Origin: JALTID01 sp027004335 [NCBI: bacterium] | GTDB taxonomy: Bacteria; JALSQH01 | Length of the DNA stretch: 9,272 nucleotides | Direction of reading: 5' to 3' | Assembly (NCBI GenBank): GCA_027004335.1 | Contig: JALTID010000155.1 | Coordinates: 1 to 9,272 of the forward strand | Shown: in pieces, positions 1 to 9,272 of the stretch | Position numbering within the stretch: position 1 is the first letter of the stretch | How the letters are laid out: each line of letters opens with the position of its first letter | Translations under genes and position numbers: made by a program | Notes under the pieces: model-generated | What the model saw: only the letters and a program-made list of their open reading frames with translations | Databases searched by the model: none | Told to the model about the DNA's origin: nothing

Positions 1-452
1 TCCACAGAATCAAAATTTTCACCAAAACCCCAGATGTGTTCCCCTGCCCTGAGGTTTATATCTCCTATGAGATATCTCTTCTCCACATCAAGATCATCAA
101 AAGGGGAAGATTTTACATTAAATTGGCTCTCATCATCTGAATAAGAAAGACGGACTTCTATATCTTTTTCCTTTCCATCCACTGTGCATTTGTACTTTAT
201 TTTGTAAGTATTACTATTTTTCCAAATTGTTATGTCACCTTTTATCTTACCTCCCATAGGACAAAATCCCGGTTTGAGCATCTCAAATATATTTTTCCCC
301 CGCTTCCTAATAGAAATCAATAAATTGGTGGTGGTTTTAATAGAAATTGCTTGCCTCTCCTTCTCACTACTCCCTCCGCAACTCTGCATCAAGAAAAATA
401 TTATAAAAGTCAAAACATAAATAATGCTAATCCTGCTTTTTTTATAAATCAT
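1..452 (-). CDS. Lipoprotein, probable GH31-family glycosidase (N-terminal part only)
   Basis: The frame is open from an ATG at 452-450 to the window edge, giving 150 residues of a longer protein. Residues 1-24 are a lipoprotein signal peptide: a basic start (IYKKSR), a hydrophobic core, then MQSC with Cys25 as the likely lipidated residue, so the protein should be membrane-anchored outside the cytoplasm. A charged linker follows, then about 110 beta-rich residues ending in AGEHIWGFGENFDSV. In GH31 enzymes (alpha-glucosidase, alpha-xylosidase and relatives) an N-terminal beta-sandwich of similar size leads into a GxGExF motif just before the catalytic barrel, which is the basis of the family call. 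The catalytic aspartates lie beyond the edge, so substrate is unknown. An AAGGAG at 461-466 supports the start. The gene is divergent from the diguanylate cyclase gene. Lipoprotein status is fairly sure; GH31 is a moderate inference from one motif and layout. Confidence 0.6.
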   Translation of the reverse strand, partial: MIYKKSRISIIYVLTFIIFFLMQSCGGSSEKERQAISIKTTTNLLISIRKRGKNIFEMLKPGFCPMGGKIKGDITIWKNSNTYKIKYKCTVDGKEKDIEVRLSYSDDESQFNVKSSPFDDLDVEKRYLIGDINLRAGEHIWGFGENFDSV

Positions 453-578: not shown

Positions 579-1607
579 ATGGATGATGTAATAAGAAAAA
601 AAGCTATCAAGGACCTTATTCCATTTATAGAAATAAGCAAAGCTCTTACATCCACCCTGAATCCAAGGGAAGTTCTTGAAATTATTATGAAAGAAATCAG
701 TGAGCTTTTCAAACCTAAAAATTGGTCACTTCTTCTTATAGATGAAGAAAAAAAAGAGCTTTATTTTGAAATAGCAATAGGTCCTGATTCCGACAAACTT
801 AAAAGAATAAGACTCAAAATTGGCGAAGGCATTGCAGGATGGGTTGCAAAACATGGTGAACCAGTAATAACGAATAACCCTTACAATGACCACAGGTTCA
901 CTCAAGAAGTTGATAAAACCATTAAATTTAAAACCCAATCCATTATTGCAGTCCCGCTAAAAAGTAAGGGTAAAATCCTCGGTGTAATTGAACTCATTAA
1001 TGAACTTGATGAAAACAAATTCACCAAGGATGATCTTATCCTCTTACAGACCTTTACTGACTTTGCCGCTATTGCTATTGAAAACGCAAGGTCCGTAGAG
1101 AAAATTAAGGAATTAACAATAAAAGATGATGTAACAAAATTATATAACGCCAGATTTCTCCATGAAGCTCTGGATAAGGAAGTAAGCAGGGCACGAAGAC
1201 ATGCAAGAAAACTCTCAATTATTTTTATTGATATTGACCATTTTAAAAATGTTAATGACACATATGGCCACCTTGTGGGAAGCAAAGTTCTATCTGAATT
1301 TGGTAACCTTATTAAAGATTCTTTAAGAAATATTGACATTCCTACAAGATATGGGGGGGATGAGTATGTAATTATCTTACCTGAAACGGATAAGAAAGGG
1401 GCTTTAAGAGTAGCCCATAGACTTAGAAACAAATTAAAACAGCATGTATTTATGGAAGAAGAAGGGTATCACATAAAAATCACTGCAAGTTTTGGAATTT
1501 CTTCCTACCCCGATGATGCTCTTGAAAAACTTGATCTGTTAAGACTGGCAGATAATGCAATGTATCGAGTTAAAGAAACCACTAGAGACGGAATTCAAAC
1601 AGCATAA
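579..1607 (+). CDS. GAF-GGDEF diguanylate cyclase
   Basis: This 342-residue cytoplasmic protein has no membrane segment. Residues about 12-172 form a GAF sensor domain (GEGIAGWVAKHGEPV and IIAVPLKSKGKILGVIELIN are typical). Residues about 178-338 form a GGDEF domain that should condense two GTP to c-di-GMP. The active-site loop is RYGGDEY (GGDEY at 259-263). The metal and guanine region DIDHFKNVNDTYGH (218-231) is intact and keeps Asp227, the position altered in Hypr enzymes that make cGAMP, so c-di-GMP is the expected product. RNID (250-253), five residues before GGDEY, is the RxxD inhibitory site, so product feedback is likely. The GAF ligand is unknown. The start is well fixed: a TAA (576-578) sits directly in frame before the ATG, and the next in-frame ATG would cut into the GAF domain. 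There is no Shine-Dalgarno at normal distance. The stop overlaps the aroF ribosome binding site, so the two are probably co-transcribed. Confidence 0.93.
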   Translation: MDDVIRKKAIKDLIPFIEISKALTSTLNPREVLEIIMKEISELFKPKNWSLLLIDEEKKELYFEIAIGPDSDKLKRIRLKIGEGIAGWVAKHGEPVITNNPYNDHRFTQEVDKTIKFKTQSIIAVPLKSKGKILGVIELINELDENKFTKDDLILLQTFTDFAAIAIENARSVEKIKELTIKDDVTKLYNARFLHEALDKEVSRARRHARKLSIIFIDIDHFKNVNDTYGHLVGSKVLSEFGNLIKDSLRNIDIPTRYGGDEYVIILPETDKKGALRVAHRLRNKLKQHVFMEEEGYHIKITASFGISSYPDDALEKLDLLRLADNAMYRVKETTRDGIQTA

Positions 1608-1616
1608 AAGGAGGTG
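1607..1616 (+). promoter_or_regulatory. Ribosome binding site that fixes the aroF start
   Basis: AAAGGAGGTG is a near-perfect Shine-Dalgarno; its GGAGG ends 6 nt before the ATG at 1621. It begins on the last base of the upstream stop codon, so translation of the two genes may be coupled. It rules out the longer in-frame start at 1555, which lies inside the GGDEF gene. Confidence 0.9.
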
Positions 1617-1620
1617 CAAC

Positions 1621-2634
1621 ATGATACTTGTTCTTAGAAAAGATGCCACGAGTGAACAAATTAAAAAATTAAAAGAAAAAATCACGGGCCTTGGGTTCAA
1701 AATCCACGAATCTACCGGGGAAGAAAGAACCATTTTGGGAATAATAGGAGGAAATGTAAACATTCTTCAGGAACTTGGTATAGAAACATACCCTGGAGTT
1801 GAGAAAGTTATAAGGGTTTTGAAACCCTATAAGTTAGTCAGCAGGGATTTCCATCCTGAGAACACTGTAATAGAGATAAATGGAGTGAGAGTTGGTGGGA
1901 ATAATTTTACTGTCATCGCTGGCCCCTGCTCTGTGGAAAGCGAGGAACAGATCATTGAAGTAGCAAAAGCTGTAAAAAAAGCTGGTGCGCATATGTTAAG
2001 GGGAGGGGCCTTTAAGCCCAGGACCTCCCCATATTCATTCAGAGGTCTAGAGAAGGAAGGAATCAGGCTTCTTCTTACCGCAAAAAAAGAAACAGGGTTA
2101 CCCATAGTAACAGAATTAATGGATCCAAGAGATATAGATCTCTTTGAAGAGATGGATGTAATTCAAATTGGAACAAGAAATATGCAAAACTACAGATTAC
2201 TCACAGAAGTTGGTAAACTAAACAAGCCCGTAATTCTAAAGAGAGGTTACGCAGCCACTATTGAGGAATGGCTTTTAGCTGCTGAATATATTGCATCAGA
2301 GGGAAACAATAAAATAATCCTCTGTGAGAGAGGTGTAAGAACTTTTGAGACGGCTACAAGGAATACCATGGATATAAGTGCTATACCACTTGTGAAAGAA
2401 TTGAGTCATTTACCCGTCATCGCTGATCCCTCTCACGGAACGGGAAGATGGGATCTCGTAGAACCCATGGCCCTTGCCTCTCTATCAGCAGGGGCAGATG
2501 GTCTCATCATAGAAGTCCACAACAACCCATTTGAAGCGTTAAGTGACGGACCACAATCCCTAAAACCCAAAAAATTTGGCAAGTTGATGGAAAAAATAAA
2601 ACAACTGGCTCCTCTTTTAGGAAAGGAAATCTAA
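1621..2634 (+). CDS. aroF: 3-deoxy-D-arabino-heptulosonate 7-phosphate synthase, type I-beta, with N-terminal regulatory domain
   Basis: This 337-aa cytoplasmic enzyme joins phosphoenolpyruvate and erythrose 4-phosphate, the first step of the shikimate pathway to aromatic amino acids. Residues 1-70 form the ferredoxin-like (ACT-like) domain starting MILVLRKDAT, which in the Thermotoga maritima enzyme mediates Phe/Tyr feedback inhibition. Residues about 85-335 form the TIM barrel. Conserved motifs are GPCSVES (Cys103), GGAFKPRTSPYSFRG (128-142, PEP/phosphate binding), LKRG (206-209), DPSHGTGR (His272), IIEVHNNP (Glu298) and LSDGPQ (Asp309). Cys103, His272, Glu298 and Asp309 match the usual metal ligands, so the protein should be active. 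Length is close to the T. maritima homologue. The start is set by the Shine-Dalgarno at 1607-1616. The gene follows the diguanylate cyclase by 13 nt, and its TAA overlaps the nadE stop on the other strand. The feedback role is inferred from the family. Confidence 0.95.
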   Translation: MILVLRKDATSEQIKKLKEKITGLGFKIHESTGEERTILGIIGGNVNILQELGIETYPGVEKVIRVLKPYKLVSRDFHPENTVIEINGVRVGGNNFTVIAGPCSVESEEQIIEVAKAVKKAGAHMLRGGAFKPRTSPYSFRGLEKEGIRLLLTAKKETGLPIVTELMDPRDIDLFEEMDVIQIGTRNMQNYRLLTEVGKLNKPVILKRGYAATIEEWLLAAEYIASEGNNKIILCERGVRTFETATRNTMDISAIPLVKELSHLPVIADPSHGTGRWDLVEPMALASLSAGADGLIIEVHNNPFEALSDGPQSLKPKKFGKLMEKIKQLAPLLGKEI

Positions 2635-4364
2635 ATATCACGATAAGTGTTTGTGATCGGCATTCTCCTATCTTTTCCAAAAGCTCGGACAGTAATTTTA
2701 ATACCTGGCGCCCCCTGTCTCCTTTTATACTCATTTTTATCCACTGTAATTATCACTTTTTTAACAATCTCTGGATCCAGCCCTTTTGCCACGATTTCCT
2801 CAAAACTCTTATCCTCTTCAATATAAGCAACAAGAATCTCATCTAAGATCTCATAAGGAGGGAGAGTATCCTCATCCTTCTGGTCAGGCCGAAGTTCTGC
2901 TGAAGGAGGTCTTTCAATTACTGATTCTGGGATCATCTCACTTCCCTTACTATCATTCACAAATCTTGACAGAGCATAAACCCGGGTCTTCAAAACATCC
3001 TTCAGAACATTAAAACCACCTACCATATCTCCGTAGAGAGTGCAATATCCCATACTTAATTCACTCTTATTCCCGGTGGAGAGAACTAAGTATCCAAATT
3101 TATTTGAAAGAGCCATCAGGATCATTCCTCTTATTCTCGCCTGGATATTTTCTTCCGTTATATCCCATTCTCTCCCTTTAAAATTAGGCGCTAACTCCCC
3201 CAAATACGCATTAAAAATATTCTCAACGGGGATTTCGTAAAATTCTATGCCGAGATTCTCTGCGAGTTTTCTGGCATCCGATTTAGTACCTGTGGAAGTA
3301 AATCTTGAAGGCATAGAGACTCCTACAACATTTTCCCTGCCAAGAGCTTCCACAGCAACTACAGCTGTAAGTGATGAATCTATACCTCCACTGAGACCAA
3401 TGATTACCTTTTCAAAACCGTTTTTTCGGACATAATCCCTGACACCAGTTACAAGAGCTTTATATATCCTCTCAACAGAAGGAGTATCCACAACTATTTG
3501 TTGGTGGGGTATAGACTTCTTTTCTACATCCCATTTTTCTGCCATATAAATATCAACCTTTACATTTTCCTCATCAACACATACAATTTTCCTTCTCCTT
3601 GGATCATGTAGCCTCGATCTGAATATCTCACCCGGATTGATATCAACCATCTCAAATGCTTCTTCAAAAGGGGGCATCTCCATCACCACTCTCCCTGCAG
3701 GATCAAAAACAAAACTGTTACCATCAAACACCAGTTCATCCTGACCACCTACAAGATTTACATAAATCAGATAAACCCCATAATCACTCGCTCTGGTAGC
3801 AAGCATTCTCTTTCTTTTTTCTTCCTTATGAATTTCATAGGGGGAAGAGGAAATATTAACTAATATCTGGGCATTCCCCACAAGAGCCTGATAATAGCCC
3901 GGACCATTGGGATACCAAACATCCTCACAGATGTTTACTCCAATTTTTACATTCCCAATTGAAAAAATAGCATTATGCGTTCCCCTCTTAAAATATCTGT
4001 TCTCATCAAAAACTCCATAGTTAGGAAGAAGCTGTTTATGATATGTATAAATTACCCTTCCCCTCTGGGCTATTGCGGCAGCATTGTAAATATCATCTCC
4101 GTCATAATCAACAAAACCTATAACTGCTATAGTTTCTTCCACAAGTTCTACAATCTCGTTTAAGGTCTTAAGGTTATTTTTTATAAAATTGGGCTTGAGA
4201 AGAAGATCCTCCGGGGGGTACCCCGGTACAACAAGCTCGGGAAAAACAACAACATCGGCTTCCTTTTCTCTGGCTCTTTCATAATAATCCAAAATAAGAT
4301 CCCTGTTTCCGTTAAGATTCCCCACTGTGGGATTAACTTGTGCTATTGCTATTCTTACTGTCAT
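2631..4364 (-). CDS. nadE: Glutamine-dependent NAD+ synthetase
   Basis: This 577-aa two-domain cytoplasmic enzyme converts nicotinic acid adenine dinucleotide to NAD+ using ATP and ammonia from glutamine, the last step of NAD synthesis. Residues 1-265 are the nitrilase-type glutaminase domain with the full triad: Glu43 (FPELVVPGYPPEDLL), Lys110 (HKQLLPNYGVFDE) and Cys146 (NICEDVW). Residues about 295-577 are the synthetase domain with the ATP-pyrophosphatase loop SGGIDSS (325-331), STGNKSE (429-435) and the conserved KDVLKTRVYALSRF region. Length is normal for the long, glutamine-using form. The ATG lies 4 nt after GGAGG (4373-4369), a rather short spacing. It overlaps, as ATGA, the old stop of the decayed mannosidase gene before it, so nadE is the last gene of the tilS-mannosidase operon. 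The TAG stop overlaps the aroF stop of the opposite strand by 4 bp. No internal promoter was identified. Confidence 0.96.
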   Translation of the reverse strand: MTVRIAIAQVNPTVGNLNGNRDLILDYYERAREKEADVVVFPELVVPGYPPEDLLLKPNFIKNNLKTLNEIVELVEETIAVIGFVDYDGDDIYNAAAIAQRGRVIYTYHKQLLPNYGVFDENRYFKRGTHNAIFSIGNVKIGVNICEDVWYPNGPGYYQALVGNAQILVNISSSPYEIHKEEKRKRMLATRASDYGVYLIYVNLVGGQDELVFDGNSFVFDPAGRVVMEMPPFEEAFEMVDINPGEIFRSRLHDPRRRKIVCVDEENVKVDIYMAEKWDVEKKSIPHQQIVVDTPSVERIYKALVTGVRDYVRKNGFEKVIIGLSGGIDSSLTAVVAVEALGRENVVGVSMPSRFTSTGTKSDARKLAENLGIEFYEIPVENIFNAYLGELAPNFKGREWDITEENIQARIRGMILMALSNKFGYLVLSTGNKSELSMGYCTLYGDMVGGFNVLKDVLKTRVYALSRFVNDSKGSEMIPESVIERPPSAELRPDQKDEDTLPPYEILDEILVAYIEEDKSFEEIVAKGLDPEIVKKVIITVDKNEYKRRQGAPGIKITVRAFGKDRRMPITNTYRDI

Positions 4365-5281
4365 ATTTCCTCCAGCAAAATTGATTCAAAACTATTTTTA
4401 ATATCAAAAGTCGTTTGCTTCTCATTGAAGGTTAATTTCTAACTCATACCATTTATCCTATAACAATTGTACTTTCCATCAAGATTGAGACCCATTGTAA
4501 GTGTTACCTTTTTATGAAGAGGGTTATAAGTCCTTATTTTTACAGCATTTTTAGCAGGCTCCAGCAACAAATTTGAAACAATTATATCTTTCCTGTTAAG
4601 AGAATAAAAACTCTTTCTTTTACGGATAATTACACCACCGGGAAGATGACACAAATAGTTTTCTCCACTTAACCCGGTTTCAAATCTCGCAGTCCATAAT
4701 AGATGAAGTGGGAGACCCGACTCATCCTTAGAAAAAATACCTGTTACAAACTGCAGATAGGGATAACCTGGAAATACCCAAGTTGTTCCCACAAGGTTAA
4801 ATTTCTCACCCTGAAGATTCCCCTCTTTAAAAATTAAGCTTCTAACTCCTCCCGCAGGAAGAGAAAAGCTAAAAACAAACTCTCCGGTTTTCACTGTACC
4901 ATCAGGATAATATTCATCCGGGAATAATTCTCCAGCTCCATCTTTATTTTTAAAATAGAGAGAAACATAACCCTGCTTTAAACTAACGGGAACACTTCCT
5001 GTATGTACTATCTCAAGAGACTTTTCTCTCAGTGAAGAAACAACAGATAACTGCTCCTGAGAATAAACTTCAGATGTCCCAGTTCCAGTTATCCACTCAT
5101 GATGATCACCGAGTACACCATTTCGCCGTGTATTTTTTATTTCATCAAAAACTGAAATAAGGGAATTTTTAATTTTCTCTTTATCCGTTCAACTTCCTCC
5201 TTTCTACCGCAACTGTCTTCAAAACAAGAAAAGAAAAAGCCCCGAAAGAAGTAAAAATTCAACAAATTCTCTTCTATCCAC
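4361..5281 (-). pseudogene. Decayed tandem paralogue of the GH38 alpha-mannosidase
   Basis: The stretch matches the neighbouring 912-aa mannosidase from first to last residue but is broken. It starts at GTG 5281-5279 with MDRREFVEFLLL, parallel to MNRRDFLNFLIS. One extra T near 5221-5224 shifts the frame; after it, EDSCGRKEE...LKIP mirrors ENGCGSKES...LGIP. Near 5160-5190 a deletion of roughly 360 codons removes the GH38 catalytic domain and shifts the frame again. The next 251 codons (about 5191-4442) are open: GDHHEWITGT mirrors IDHHDWIPGT, FPDEYYPDGTVKTGE mirrors FPDEIYSDGNVKSGK, and RFETGLSGENYLCHLPGGV mirrors RFETALAGDKFLAHLPGGV. About 105 residues (near mannosidase 541-648) and 108 residues (717-824) are missing in frame, with a smaller gap before FPDE. 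TAG at 4441-4439 interrupts the tail; behind it NSFESILLEEI mirrors NPLESFLFEET and ends at TGA 4363-4361. The longest conventional ORF, from GTG 4894, gives only 151 aa. It lacks the nucleophile and the HxD zinc ligands, so it cannot be a mannosidase. Confidence 0.88.
4369..4373 (-). promoter_or_regulatory. Ribosome binding site of nadE inside the pseudogene tail
   Basis: GGAGG 4 nt before the nadE ATG. It sits in what were the last codons (Leu-Glu-Glu-Ile) of the decayed mannosidase. This gives one reason why this tail might survive while the rest of that gene eroded. Confidence 0.75.
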
Positions 5282-8012
5282 TACTTTCCCCCTTTGTTTC
5301 CTCAAATAGAAAAGATTCCAGCGGGTTGCTTAGCTGAAATTCACCATATTCTGAAAAATTTCCAACATCCTCAAGTTTTTCCTCTCTTCCATTAACCTTA
5401 AAGATCTTAAATTTGCCCTCCAGGCCCAATCTAAATTTAATTTTTTCTTTCAAATGAAACGGATTGTAAAATTCTGCCACAATACCTCTATATCTTAAAC
5501 TATTACGCAGGAGTACAAGAAAATCTTTTTGATCTAACGAAAAAAATGTTTTTTCTCCCTCAGCTTTTGAAGAAATCACTTCACCCATGACTCCATTTTC
5601 AAAATAAAAACCATACCTCAGCATATCTTCATTACTCAGGCTCTCGGCAGGGTAAAGAAGATATCTGCTTCTATATCCATTCTTTTCTTCGCACCATGCT
5701 CCTAAATTAGCGCATTCTTCAAGTTTTGCATTTCTCAGGAGAACCGCCTCTATTACACCATCCTTATCCACCCTCCATGCTCTGTTACCAGCAGAAGCAA
5801 AAAGAACATCAGGCATATTCTCCGAATATAGTTTCAGCCATCCTTCCACCGGCCAGTAGGTTGGGGAATAGAAACTTTCCCTTTTTCTCTCATAAACACC
5901 ACCGGGCAGATGGGCTAAAAATTTATCACCAGCAAGAGCAGTTTCAAATCTTGAGACCCATGCTACATGCTCGGGAAGATCTCCCTCCGGTGTTATCTCT
6001 GTCTCAAAAAGAAGCAGAGGAGAATCAGGAAAAAACCAGATAATTTTTTCTACAGAAAAACCTTCATATTTCCCGTTGTATTTTACCCCCCAACGAAAAG
6101 GCTGTTGGTCCAGAATTTCAAACTGTGTCTCTGATGGAGTTGCTGGAATAGAAGTATAATCCCCACATGGCAATTCCATTCCCATTCTGTAAGGACCACC
6201 ATTATCCTTATAAAGAAGAAGCTGATTTCCTCTTGCATTAAATATCAACTTCTTTGATTGAAAAGATAATTCAATTATATCACCAGTAGATTTCTCAATC
6301 TGCACAGGATCATAATAGGCAGTTCTCACCTCAATATAATCACCATAGTCCCCCTCCACAACAAAGGGTGAAGTGTTAATATCAACATTATTCAACCTTA
6401 TTATTTTCATGGTTCCACCAGTGATGGATAAATCAACAACAAGCTTCCCACTTTTTACATTACCATCAGAATATATCTCATCCGGAAAGACTTGACCTTT
6501 ACCTCTCTCCTCTATAAAACCAGGACTCTGATACTTATCTGGAAGGGTCACATCAATTTCATCATAATATCTCACATCAAAAGGAAAGGGATTTAATATC
6601 ACCAGCGTAGGATCACCCTCCTCCGAATTGATATAAGATCTTATAATTTTTCCTGCTAATTGATTTGACTCAGCTTTCAGTTTCTCTCCATCCGGGAGTT
6701 GTTCACCATAATATACAGCAGGAACGCTTGTTCCCGGGATCCAGTCATGATGATCAATCAAAACCGCCTGCTCCCAGATGCTTTTTATTTCTCCATAAAA
6801 ATCTTCTTTGTTTTCAAAGGTAGAAAAAACATTTACCATTTCAGCGGCAGTCAAGTTTTCTGTAATAACAGTAGAATGTTCTTTCAAAACAGGATGATAC
6901 GAGTAGAAACCTGTCCACAATGGATTTAAATCCGCTTGAAAAACTGGAATATTTTTTTCGTCACTTTCAGCCATCTTCATAAAATCAGCAAAGGTGGCAG
7001 TTACAGCATAGACCCCTGTCTCTCTATATCTTCTTCTATTCCACAGATCAGCATACTCTGCAAGATGAATATGAGGCGATTGAAAATCACATCCCACGGG
7101 GACAAAAAGATATTTTCTATTTTTAGAAAAGGGGGCAAGGTCATTTATATAACCTTCTATTCTTTTCAGGATAAGATCCTCATTATTTGAATCATCCGTC
7201 AATCTTGCACCGGGAAGTGTCACGGGAGAAACAGAATCAATATCATCACCCTGACAGTATGTAAGAGGCATCCAGTATGCAAGTACTTTACCACCCCCCG
7301 GACCCACCCATCGAAAAAGAGATATTCCATCTTTTAAAAAATATTCTCCATGAGAACCTTTTCTATATCCTGAATCTCCATACAATTTTTCCATAATACC
7401 CTTTAATTCCCATGACATAAAAGCCGTTGCCCCATCAATTCTTGAGAATCCCACATATTTATACCCCAGATATGAAAGGATATCTGGAAGGGTCGCTGAA
7501 TGACCAAAACTATCAGGCTGCCATGCAGCTATGGGGAAGCCACCAAGATTCTCATTAACCCACAAATTCCCCAGCACCCAATCCATGATAAGCATATCCG
7601 GGGTAGGAAGTAGAGTATCAGGACTGGTAAACCCACCCCCCACAATCTGAAGACGGTTCTCCCTGTAATATTTCAACATCTCCTCCCTCTTCTCAGGATG
7701 GTCATCCCAATACCTTTTTAAAAAAGCGATCTCACAAATGGAATATGTATTCTTATTGTTATATCTTAAATGTACAAGAGAATCATTTATTATTCCCTCC
7801 ACATTTTCTCTATAATATCCATCAAAGGTTTTCTGCCAGTTAATATCCCAGTGGGAAGATTGTGAGAGAACAAGAACTTTTTGGGCACCTGCTGGAATCC
7901 CAAGAGATTGCTTCAGATTCTCGCTTTCCTTACTACCACAGCCATTTTCAAAACCCAAGAAAACAATAGCACCTGTAGATATGAGAAAATTTAAAAAATC
8001 TCTCCTATTCAT
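5274..8012 (-). CDS. GH38-family alpha-mannosidase, exported, twin-arginine/lipoprotein-type leader
   Basis: This 912-aa enzyme probably hydrolyses alpha-mannosides outside the cytoplasm. The leader MNRRDFLNFL has the twin arginine and hydrophobic core of a Tat signal and ends at Cys25 (FENGCGS). A Tat-exported lipoprotein is plausible, though Glu at -3 is not a classic lipobox. The GH38 catalytic domain spans about 45-345: SSHWDINW gives zinc ligands His54 and Asp56, and WQPDSFGHS gives Asp167, the expected nucleophile and third ligand. The middle domain (about 365-450) has GFYSYHPVLKEHS and then IDHHDWIPGTS, whose His421/His422 includes the fourth zinc ligand. The remainder is the GH38 C-terminal beta-sandwich. 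All catalytic features are present. The ATG is confirmed by AAGGAGGT at 8020-8027 and overlaps the tilS stop by 8 nt; its own TAG lies within the first codons of the decayed copy downstream. The physiological substrate and exact linkage cannot be read from sequence. Confidence 0.9.
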   Translation of the reverse strand: MNRRDFLNFLISTGAIVFLGFENGCGSKESENLKQSLGIPAGAQKVLVLSQSSHWDINWQKTFDGYYRENVEGIINDSLVHLRYNNKNTYSICEIAFLKRYWDDHPEKREEMLKYYRENRLQIVGGGFTSPDTLLPTPDMLIMDWVLGNLWVNENLGGFPIAAWQPDSFGHSATLPDILSYLGYKYVGFSRIDGATAFMSWELKGIMEKLYGDSGYRKGSHGEYFLKDGISLFRWVGPGGGKVLAYWMPLTYCQGDDIDSVSPVTLPGARLTDDSNNEDLILKRIEGYINDLAPFSKNRKYLFVPVGCDFQSPHIHLAEYADLWNRRRYRETGVYAVTATFADFMKMAESDEKNIPVFQADLNPLWTGFYSYHPVLKEHSTVITENLTAAEMVNVFSTFENKEDFYGEIKSIWEQAVLIDHHDWIPGTSVPAVYYGEQLPDGEKLKAESNQLAGKIIRSYINSEEGDPTLVILNPFPFDVRYYDEIDVTLPDKYQSPGFIEERGKGQVFPDEIYSDGNVKSGKLVVDLSITGGTMKIIRLNNVDINTSPFVVEGDYGDYIEVRTAYYDPVQIEKSTGDIIELSFQSKKLIFNARGNQLLLYKDNGGPYRMGMELPCGDYTSIPATPSETQFEILDQQPFRWGVKYNGKYEGFSVEKIIWFFPDSPLLLFETEITPEGDLPEHVAWVSRFETALAGDKFLAHLPGGVYERKRESFYSPTYWPVEGWLKLYSENMPDVLFASAGNRAWRVDKDGVIEAVLLRNAKLEECANLGAWCEEKNGYRSRYLLYPAESLSNEDMLRYGFYFENGVMGEVISSKAEGEKTFFSLDQKDFLVLLRNSLRYRGIVAEFYNPFHLKEKIKFRLGLEGKFKIFKVNGREEKLEDVGNFSEYGEFQLSNPLESFLFEETKGESSG

Positions 8013-9272
8013 TACTAATACCTCCTTTTCTCAGTTCTGCCGAAAGGAAAAATTCTTCACCTTTACATTCATATTTTACCTCAACACCGGGAACCCACAC
8101 AATTTCACCTTCAGAATTCAGAATCACAGGTAACAATTTCCTCGTTATCTTCCCAATTTTTTTATTAGCAAAAATATCTTTGAGTTTTTTTTCAATCACT
8201 CTATGACCATATCTGATTTTCATTCTATCTCCCGGAGAATAACGCCTGATTGTTAACATGCCATCCTTAAAACAATCTTTTTTAATACCCTGGACAAATC
8301 CATCTTTCAGAGGATCCATAGAAGCATTAATCTGCCACAGCTCAAGTTTCAATGAGTCAGGAATCTTAATTGAGATACTCTCCTCCATCAAAAGGTATTT
8401 AAAACTTCCTGGACAGATAAGGAGAAAATCAAAAAATGTAAAGACCGTAACTTTCCTGAAAAAATCTCTATAAAATTCCCTGCCACCTCCTAACAACTCA
8501 TCAATTTGATTTACAAATTCAAAATTTCCTCCTCCCTCAAGCCCCACTCTGGATGCGAGATCCCTTAAAATTTCACCCTTTTCAAAGAAACTTAATCCCC
8601 TCAAGCAATCAATTTTACAACCATAACATCCCCATCCATATCTCCGGCAATTCTCCTTCATTAAAGAATGAATATGATGCCTGAGAAATTTTTCAGTCTC
8701 ATAAAAAAGAAGATACTGCGCCTCTCCTATCTTTCTATATAAATCATAACCCAGTTTAGATGAAATATACGGGATTATATCAAGTCTAATCAAATTCCTC
8801 GTATACCTTTTTGAAAAATTGGTACGATCTAGACGAAAAGGAATATTTTTCTCATTGAGGAACTTGATAATCTCCTCTTTCTTAATGACTAACATTGGTC
8901 TCACTATTTTCCCCCTTATCGGGGGTATGCCAATGAGTCCCTTTAAGCCTGCCCCCCTAAAAAAATTAAAAATAACTGTTTCAACATTATCATTCAAATT
9001 ATGGGCAGTAAAAATATAATCGTAACCATGTTCAAATTCTTTAAAAAAGCTGTATCTTACTCTCCTCGCCGCTTCTTCAAGGGTCTCACCCTGCCTCTTC
9101 AAAGCAGGAACATCCACTTTTCTCCATAACAGGGCAACGCCATTTTTATATGCCAATTCCCTAACAAACTCTTCATCCAGATCACTTTCTTTGCCTCTTA
9201 TCCCATGATTAAGATGAATAAGAGTAAGATCAAAATCCAATTTATCTTTTCTATCCAGCAGATAATAAAATA
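8005..9272 (-). CDS. tilS: tRNA(Ile)-lysidine synthase (N-terminus outside the window)
   Basis: TilS attaches lysine to C34 of the CAU anticodon of tRNA-Ile, turning AUG decoding into AUA decoding. The frame is open to the window edge (421 residues visible), so the TTG at 9240 is not the real start: upstream codons read FYYLLDRKDKLDFDLTL in good agreement with the family. The ATP-binding SGGxDS loop lies just beyond the edge. Visible marks are HLNHGIRGKESD, then TLEEAARRVRYSFF, AHNLNDNVETVIFNFFRGAGLKGL (the H-x-x-D/N-D-x-x-E-T block) and RPMLVIKKEEI. Near the end, RRYSPGDRMK, EKKLKDIFANKKIGKITRKLLPVI and IVWVPGVEV belong to the TilS C-terminal domain, so this is the long form. Between the two lies a cysteine cluster, C-x6-C-x2-C-x3-C (8649-8605), that is not a usual TilS feature as far as I know. 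The TAG stop overlaps the mannosidase ATG by 8 nt. Confidence 0.93.
   Translation of the reverse strand, partial: FYYLLDRKDKLDFDLTLIHLNHGIRGKESDLDEEFVRELAYKNGVALLWRKVDVPALKRQGETLEEAARRVRYSFFKEFEHGYDYIFTAHNLNDNVETVIFNFFRGAGLKGLIGIPPIRGKIVRPMLVIKKEEIIKFLNEKNIPFRLDRTNFSKRYTRNLIRLDIIPYISSKLGYDLYRKIGEAQYLLFYETEKFLRHHIHSLMKENCRRYGWGCYGCKIDCLRGLSFFEKGEILRDLASRVGLEGGGNFEFVNQIDELLGGGREFYRDFFRKVTVFTFFDFLLICPGSFKYLLMEESISIKIPDSLKLELWQINASMDPLKDGFVQGIKKDCFKDGMLTIRRYSPGDRMKIRYGHRVIEKKLKDIFANKKIGKITRKLLPVILNSEGEIVWVPGVEVKYECKGEEFFLSAELRKGGISNE
8020..8027 (-). promoter_or_regulatory. Ribosome binding site of the mannosidase, within the tilS 3' end
   Basis: AAGGAGGT lies 7 nt before the ATG at 8012-8010 and inside the last codons of tilS. 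It fixes the mannosidase start and implies coupled translation. Confidence 0.85.

What the first reader, a model, noticed from the sequence alone, without database searches (positions are those of the whole stretch)
4361..5281. A complete tandem GH38 mannosidase paralogue reduced to a multiply deleted pseudogene
What would be annotated as a 151-aa hypothetical protein plus about 380 bp of non-coding DNA is a second mannosidase gene. Its leader (RREFVEFLLL, then EDSCG after one extra T), a middle part (GDHHEWITGT, FPDEYYPDG, RFETGLSGENYLCHLPGG) and its tail (NSFESILLEE) align in order with the intact copy next door. The catalytic domain is gone, two frameshifts separate the leader from the rest, and a TAG interrupts the tail. 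Its original start and stop still overlap the neighbouring genes, so it was once a normal operon member.
Basis: seen in the sequence. Interest (0 to 1): 0.62.

Follow-up and report, generated by a model that had tools for sequence, protein, structure and literature searches.

The report
Decayed second copy of mannosidase gene
Next to an intact sugar-cutting enzyme gene of an uncultured bacterium lies the wreck of a second copy that has lost its active part; this is an ordinary case of a duplicate gene dying.

Summary
On the minus strand, 4361-5281 aligns in order with the neighbouring 912-aa GH38 alpha-mannosidase from residue 1 to 905 (frameshift-aware score 464; 60 codon shuffles mean 63, maximum 90). 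About 600 of 912 codons are missing in at least four blocks, including the whole GH38 catalytic domain. Two frame changes break the leader and a TAG breaks the tail. The 151-aa ORF starts in mid-domain at a GTG with no convincing ribosome site. The original start and stop still overlap the neighbouring genes. It is a tandem paralogue turned pseudogene.

What I add: the one same-family genome held (G001; its contig matches JALSQH010000073.1, hydrothermal-vent candidate phylum JALSQH01) shows tilS-GH38 on one contig and a GH38 tail-nadE on another, with one GH38 gene seen. The remnant is about equally far from both intact proteins (26 versus 29 shared sites of 246), so a duplication younger than the split of the two genera is unsupported, though not excluded. 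The loss looks late: two thirds of the gene was deleted while one stop arose by a point change (rough inference). Ordinary in kind, low interest.

The parts
5279..5281 (-). original start codon (GTG) of the remnant; its reading overlaps the stop of the intact copy (5274-5276)
   Evidence: sequence; purine-rich AAAGGGGGAAAG upstream
5225..5281 (-). leader part 1, VDRREFVEFLLLSGLFLFL, matches residues 1-19 of the intact copy
5161..5223 (-). leader part 2 in the shifted frame (FEDSCG...KLKIP), matches residues 21-40
5140..5161 (-). junction of the main deletion (about residues 41-404, with the whole GH38N domain) and return of the frame; exact point not placed
5048..5140 (-). block matching residues about 409-439, with HHEWITGT in place of HHDWIPGT
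4787..4984 (-). block matching residues about 489-554
   Evidence: one search splits its second half differently
4601..4810 (-). best conserved block, residues 649-716, 51% identity
4364..4615 (-). tail matching residues 821-906, interrupted by TAG at 4439-4441
4361..4363 (-). original stop TGA, overlapping the NadE start ATG (4362-4364)
4439..4894 (-). 151-aa ORF that would be annotated; starts in mid-domain, most likely not a gene
5274..8012 (-). intact GH38 alpha-mannosidase copy, 912 aa, twin-arginine-like leader (motif recalled)
   Evidence: Pfam Glyco_hydro_38N 2.1e-33, Alpha-mann_mid 2.8e-12, Glyco_hydro_38C below cut-off
2631..4364 (-). nadE-type NAD synthetase with carbon-nitrogen hydrolase domain, downstream neighbour
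   Evidence: Pfam NAD_synthase 1.3e-78, CN_hydrolase 5e-31
8005..9240 (-). tilS-type gene, upstream neighbour, overlaps the intact mannosidase start
   Evidence: Pfam ATP_bind_3 1.8e-39, TilS_C 1.8e-08

Best explanation
The stretch is the wreck of a second GH38 alpha-mannosidase gene that once sat in the order tilS - GH38 copy A - GH38 copy B - nadE. Copy B arose by tandem duplication, probably before or near the split of the two known genera of the family. It stayed under protein-level constraint for most of its history, then lost function and was whittled down mainly by deletions: about 1.8 kb of 2.7 kb is gone, while one stop from a point change is seen. Shown: collinear homology, missing catalytic domain, frame changes, stop, no ATG/GTG/TTG for the upstream part of the open frame. 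Inferred: duplication age, order of events, and the idea that the last bases persist because they carry the ribosome site and start overlap of nadE. The confidence is for the pseudogene claim, not for the dating.
For: Score 464 against shuffle maximum 90, collinear over residues 1-905. One GH38N match in the whole assembly, in copy A. No Pfam match in 4439-4978 and no NCBIfam match in 4439-5161. No ATG, GTG or TTG in the open frame before 4894, and that GTG has 3 of 6 Shine-Dalgarno matches; starts further inside reach at most 4 of 6, and those with 4 leave 71 codons or fewer. A GGAGG ahead of the nadE ATG lies inside the remnant's tail. Changes unique to the remnant fall more on codon positions 1+2 (74 of 118) than those unique to copy A (51 of 108; Fisher p 0.023). 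107 of 2169 possible single-base changes in the open stretch (its TAG codon included) would make a stop, so one stop fits recent decay. Sites shared with copy A only 29, with G001 only 26, of 246.
Against: The open frame of 249 codons has no stop (2000 mononucleotide shuffles: median 55, maximum 149), and the three internal deletions are in frame with each other, which chance gives about 1 time in 27 (my estimate), so residual selection is not excluded. The position-1+2 excess is not significant against the G001 branch (61 of 110; p 0.28) or against both together (p 0.051). No genome with two intact copies was found. On dating: no topology is rejected by AU, and the site counts (copy A and G001 share 46) and the best tree (remnant with G001) point different ways.
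Confidence: 0.93

Rival explanations
1. The remnant is a shortened but still used protein: a non-catalytic C-terminal GH38 fragment translated from the GTG at 4894 or an unusual start.
For: Open frame of 249 codons without a stop, in-frame internal deletions; differences still concentrate on codon position 3.
Against: No ATG, GTG or TTG before 4894 and only 3 of 6 ribosome-site matches there; that start cuts a domain in the middle; HHD, invariant in the 5 proteins aligned, reads HHE; the tail has a TAG; no short form seen in the one same-family genome.
Confidence: 0.05
2. The breaks are assembly or strain-mixing artefacts of a draft genome.
For: The assembly has 262 contigs and is 80% complete; reads cannot be inspected.
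Against: At least four deletions, two frame changes, a stop, and 54% amino-acid difference from copy A over 246 sites cannot come from misassembly of copy A; both gene junctions are clean overlaps.
Confidence: 0.02
3. A variant of the best explanation, on dating only: the duplication is recent, in the window's own genus, and the pseudogene merely evolved fast.
For: Tandem position; AU does not reject this topology (0.285 and 0.213); 29 against 26 shared sites leans this way by 3.
Against: Copy B shares hardly more sites with copy A (29) than with G001 (26); the best tree puts it with G001 at bootstrap 72 and 83; its leader, aligned by hand, has the 41-residue length of the G001 leader, one more than copy A.
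Confidence: 0.2

Closest known systems
Deletion-degraded bacterial pseudogenes (Kuo and Ochman 2010, PMC2916853; abstract and passages seen)
   Same: A gene not kept by selection is disabled by small changes and removed by deletion; the passages seen speak of strong deletional bias in Salmonella and bacterial genomes.
   Different: Here the dead gene is the downstream member of an old tandem pair in an uncultured lineage; no strain series is available to date it.
GH38 alpha-mannosidases (Pfam PF01074, PF09261, PF07748; PDB matches 1hty, 2wyh and others)
   Same: The intact copy has the GH38N and middle domains and H54, D56, D167, H421, H422, D423, invariant in the 5 proteins.
   Different: The remnant lacks the catalytic domain; no Pfam match in 4439-4978 and no NCBIfam match in 4439-5161.
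GH38 gene of G001 / JALSQH010000073.1
   Same: 56% identical to the intact copy over residues 1-833, also directly downstream of tilS; a GH38 tail also overlaps the nadE start on another contig of that genome.
   Different: One copy seen; its contig stops inside the gene, so a second copy there is neither shown nor excluded.

Membership tests
Pseudogene of a GH38 tandem paralogue | Significant collinear homology to the intact gene from start to end | tested here: met
   score 464, all controls at most 90
Pseudogene of a GH38 tandem paralogue | Disabling lesions (frameshift, stop, loss of essential domain) | tested here: met
   GH38N only in copy A
Pseudogene of a GH38 tandem paralogue | No usable translation start for the remaining frame | tested here: met
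   by sequence only: none of ATG/GTG/TTG before 4894, poor ribosome site there; rarer start codons were not scored
Pseudogene of a GH38 tandem paralogue | Relaxed protein-level constraint | tested here: inconclusive
   p 0.023 against copy A, 0.28 against G001, 0.051 combined
Pseudogene of a GH38 tandem paralogue | Intact two-copy arrangement in a relative | tested here: inconclusive
   one same-family genome only, contigs broken at the place
Functional GH38 enzyme | GH38N domain with zinc ligands and nucleophile (residue roles recalled) | tested here: not met
   residues about 41-404 absent

The most novel reading that the evidence does not exclude
The family's ancestor carried two divergent GH38 genes between tilS and nadE, and the two genera resolved the pair in opposite ways: the window's lineage kept copy A and lost copy B, while the JALSQH lineage kept the copy-B type.
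Probability: 0.3. Interest if true: 0.3.

Novelty: new member of a known kind. Interest (0 to 1): 0.17.

Why it matters
It corrects what automatic annotation would probably call a 151-aa hypothetical protein plus non-coding DNA, and gives a small example of deletion-driven gene loss in a candidate phylum with few genomes. It does not change any general picture.

Tried and rejected
Second intact copy: the GH38N model hits once in each of G000 and G001; the GH38C model misses even the G001 gene and is below cut-off in G000, so its silence means nothing. Two genome-contig scans: by single protein, 13 candidate stretches, none confirmed; by alignment, 38 candidates, 1 locus, the G001 contig itself. 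Relatives: 10 of 98 genomes, the window's own included, have a GH38 match at 1e-10; with the remnant as query 4 of 98 at 1e-3. Only G001 is in the same family; the other 96 are 'same domain' only, so their gene order was not pursued. The tree test rejects no topology by AU; its bp-RELL column alone marks copy A with G001 as outside the set (0.047 and 0.020). A post hoc impression, untested: leader, C2, tail and end blocks share 16 sites with G001 and 9 with copy A, the other blocks 10 and 20; gene conversion or chance. General genome decay: in 20 stretches from 20 contigs ORF cover was 75-100% each; this measure is coarse, since the window itself scores 94% with the remnant in it, so other remnants are not excluded. 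The pooled 0.945 printed includes three re-fetched records (L052-L054) and is not used. Short direct repeats at deletion ends: not tested, because copy A is too diverged to place the ends. Literature: one search on GH38, alpha-mannosidase, tandem, pseudogene, bacteria listed 2 papers, neither opened; one on tandem duplication and deletion bias listed 1 maize paper, not opened; one search listed 10 of 103. Papers: PMC9793634 passages only; PMC2916853 abstract, section list and passages.

Full report
Check of the observation. On the minus strand the window reads tilS, a 912-aa GH38 alpha-mannosidase (5274-8012), the stretch in question, and nadE (2631-4364). tblastn of the mannosidase against 4361-5281 finds the leader in two frames, a block around HHEWITGT, a block around FPDEYYPDG, the block RFETGLSGENYLCHLPGG and the tail. 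A frameshift-aware alignment with capped gap cost joins them collinearly from residue 1 to 905, score 464, 128 identities in 300 aligned codons. Sixty codon shuffles gave mean 63, sd 10, maximum 90; reverse complement 39; reversed mannosidase 70; NadE 52; TilS 45. This is far beyond chance.

Anatomy of the damage. The leader changes frame at codon 20. After about residue 40 the sequence jumps to about residue 405 and returns to the first frame, which removes the whole GH38N domain (residues 52-193 match the Pfam model in the intact copy). Further blocks are missing at about 450-477, 555-645 and 717-820. These boundaries are mine and approximate; the alignment splits some gaps and adds a small one, 603 codons in all. 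A TAG stands at 4439-4441 where copy A and G001 have a glutamate codon. The GTG reading overlaps the stop of the intact copy, and the TGA overlaps the ATG of nadE. The frame from 5188 to 4442 is open, but no ATG, GTG or TTG occurs before 4894, and that GTG has 3 of 6 Shine-Dalgarno matches. No Pfam model matches 4439-4978 and no NCBIfam model matches 4439-5161. The promoter-like and terminator-like scans find one site each, no more than shuffles lead one to expect (means 2.7 and 0.8).

Relatives. In 98 genomes the mannosidase has matches in 10, own included, but only G001 is in the same family. There the mannosidase, 56% identical over residues 1-833, lies next to tilS on a 4228-base contig that ends inside the gene. 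nadE (79%) lies on another contig that begins inside a mannosidase tail ending LLEEL and overlapping the nadE start. That prefix is the name of candidate phylum JALSQH01, for which the paper reports 3 MAGs from deep-sea hydrothermal deposits (PMC9793634, passages). That the window belongs to the same phylum follows from the family assignment. GH38N occurs once per genome. A second copy in G001 is not seen, but the contig break falls just where it would lie.

Age. At 246 comparable residues the remnant matches only G001 at 26, only copy A at 29, and the other two match each other at 46. A recent duplication inside the window's genus should have made remnant and copy A clearly closer. Maximum likelihood puts the remnant with G001 (bootstrap 72 and 83), but AU rejects none of three topologies (p 0.075 to 0.835), so the order of splitting is open. 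Pairwise dN is 0.52 (remnant-G001), 0.49 (remnant-copy A) and 0.42 (between the intact genes); dS is 1.7 and 2.4 and could not be computed for the third pair, that is, saturated. The remnant's branch is thus only modestly longer, and most of its history was probably under constraint. Position-1+2 changes unique to the remnant are 74 of 118, against 51 of 108 for copy A and 61 of 110 for G001 (p 0.023, 0.28; combined 0.051). Read as an excess of about 18 changes, this is about 4% neutral change since loss, which predicts about one new stop; one is seen. This is a rough estimate of mine on a weak signal.

Against the reading. Three internal deletions that keep frame and a long open frame leave a small place for a used fragment; I give that 5%. 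The relaxed-constraint signal is weak. No two-copy relative was found, and with one same-family genome the test had little power.

Verdict. It is an ordinary tandem-duplicate pseudogene, dismantled mainly by deletion. A coarse sample of the genome (20 stretches, 75-100% ORF cover) gives no sign of gross decay, but would not see remnants like this one.

Noticed in passing
window 3-452 (-): Start of a lipoprotein-like ORF (signal peptide with QSCGG) running off the contig, with GFGENFDSV that by recall resembles the N-terminal part of GH31 glucosidases; no Pfam or NCBIfam match.
   Followed up: partly
window 5274-8012 (-) and L004 2-2509 (-): Both intact GH38 proteins begin with a twin-arginine-like leader (RRDFLNFL / RREFLKFL) followed by a cysteine, which suggests export, perhaps with a lipid anchor; motif recalled, not tested.
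   Followed up: no
window 2631-9240 (-), L004 and L028: tilS overlaps the start of GH38 in both genera, and a GH38 tail overlaps the nadE start in both: an odd conserved order of housekeeping genes around a glycosidase.
   Followed up: partly
L036 3584-4293 (G000:C20): A 710-base internal stretch not covered by ORFs of 80 aa or more; could be an RNA gene or another remnant.
   Followed up: no
window 1555-2634 (+): The DAHP synthase ORF as listed overlaps the GGDEF gene upstream; its first domain starts at residue 23, so the real start is probably the later ATG (MILVLRKD).
   Followed up: no
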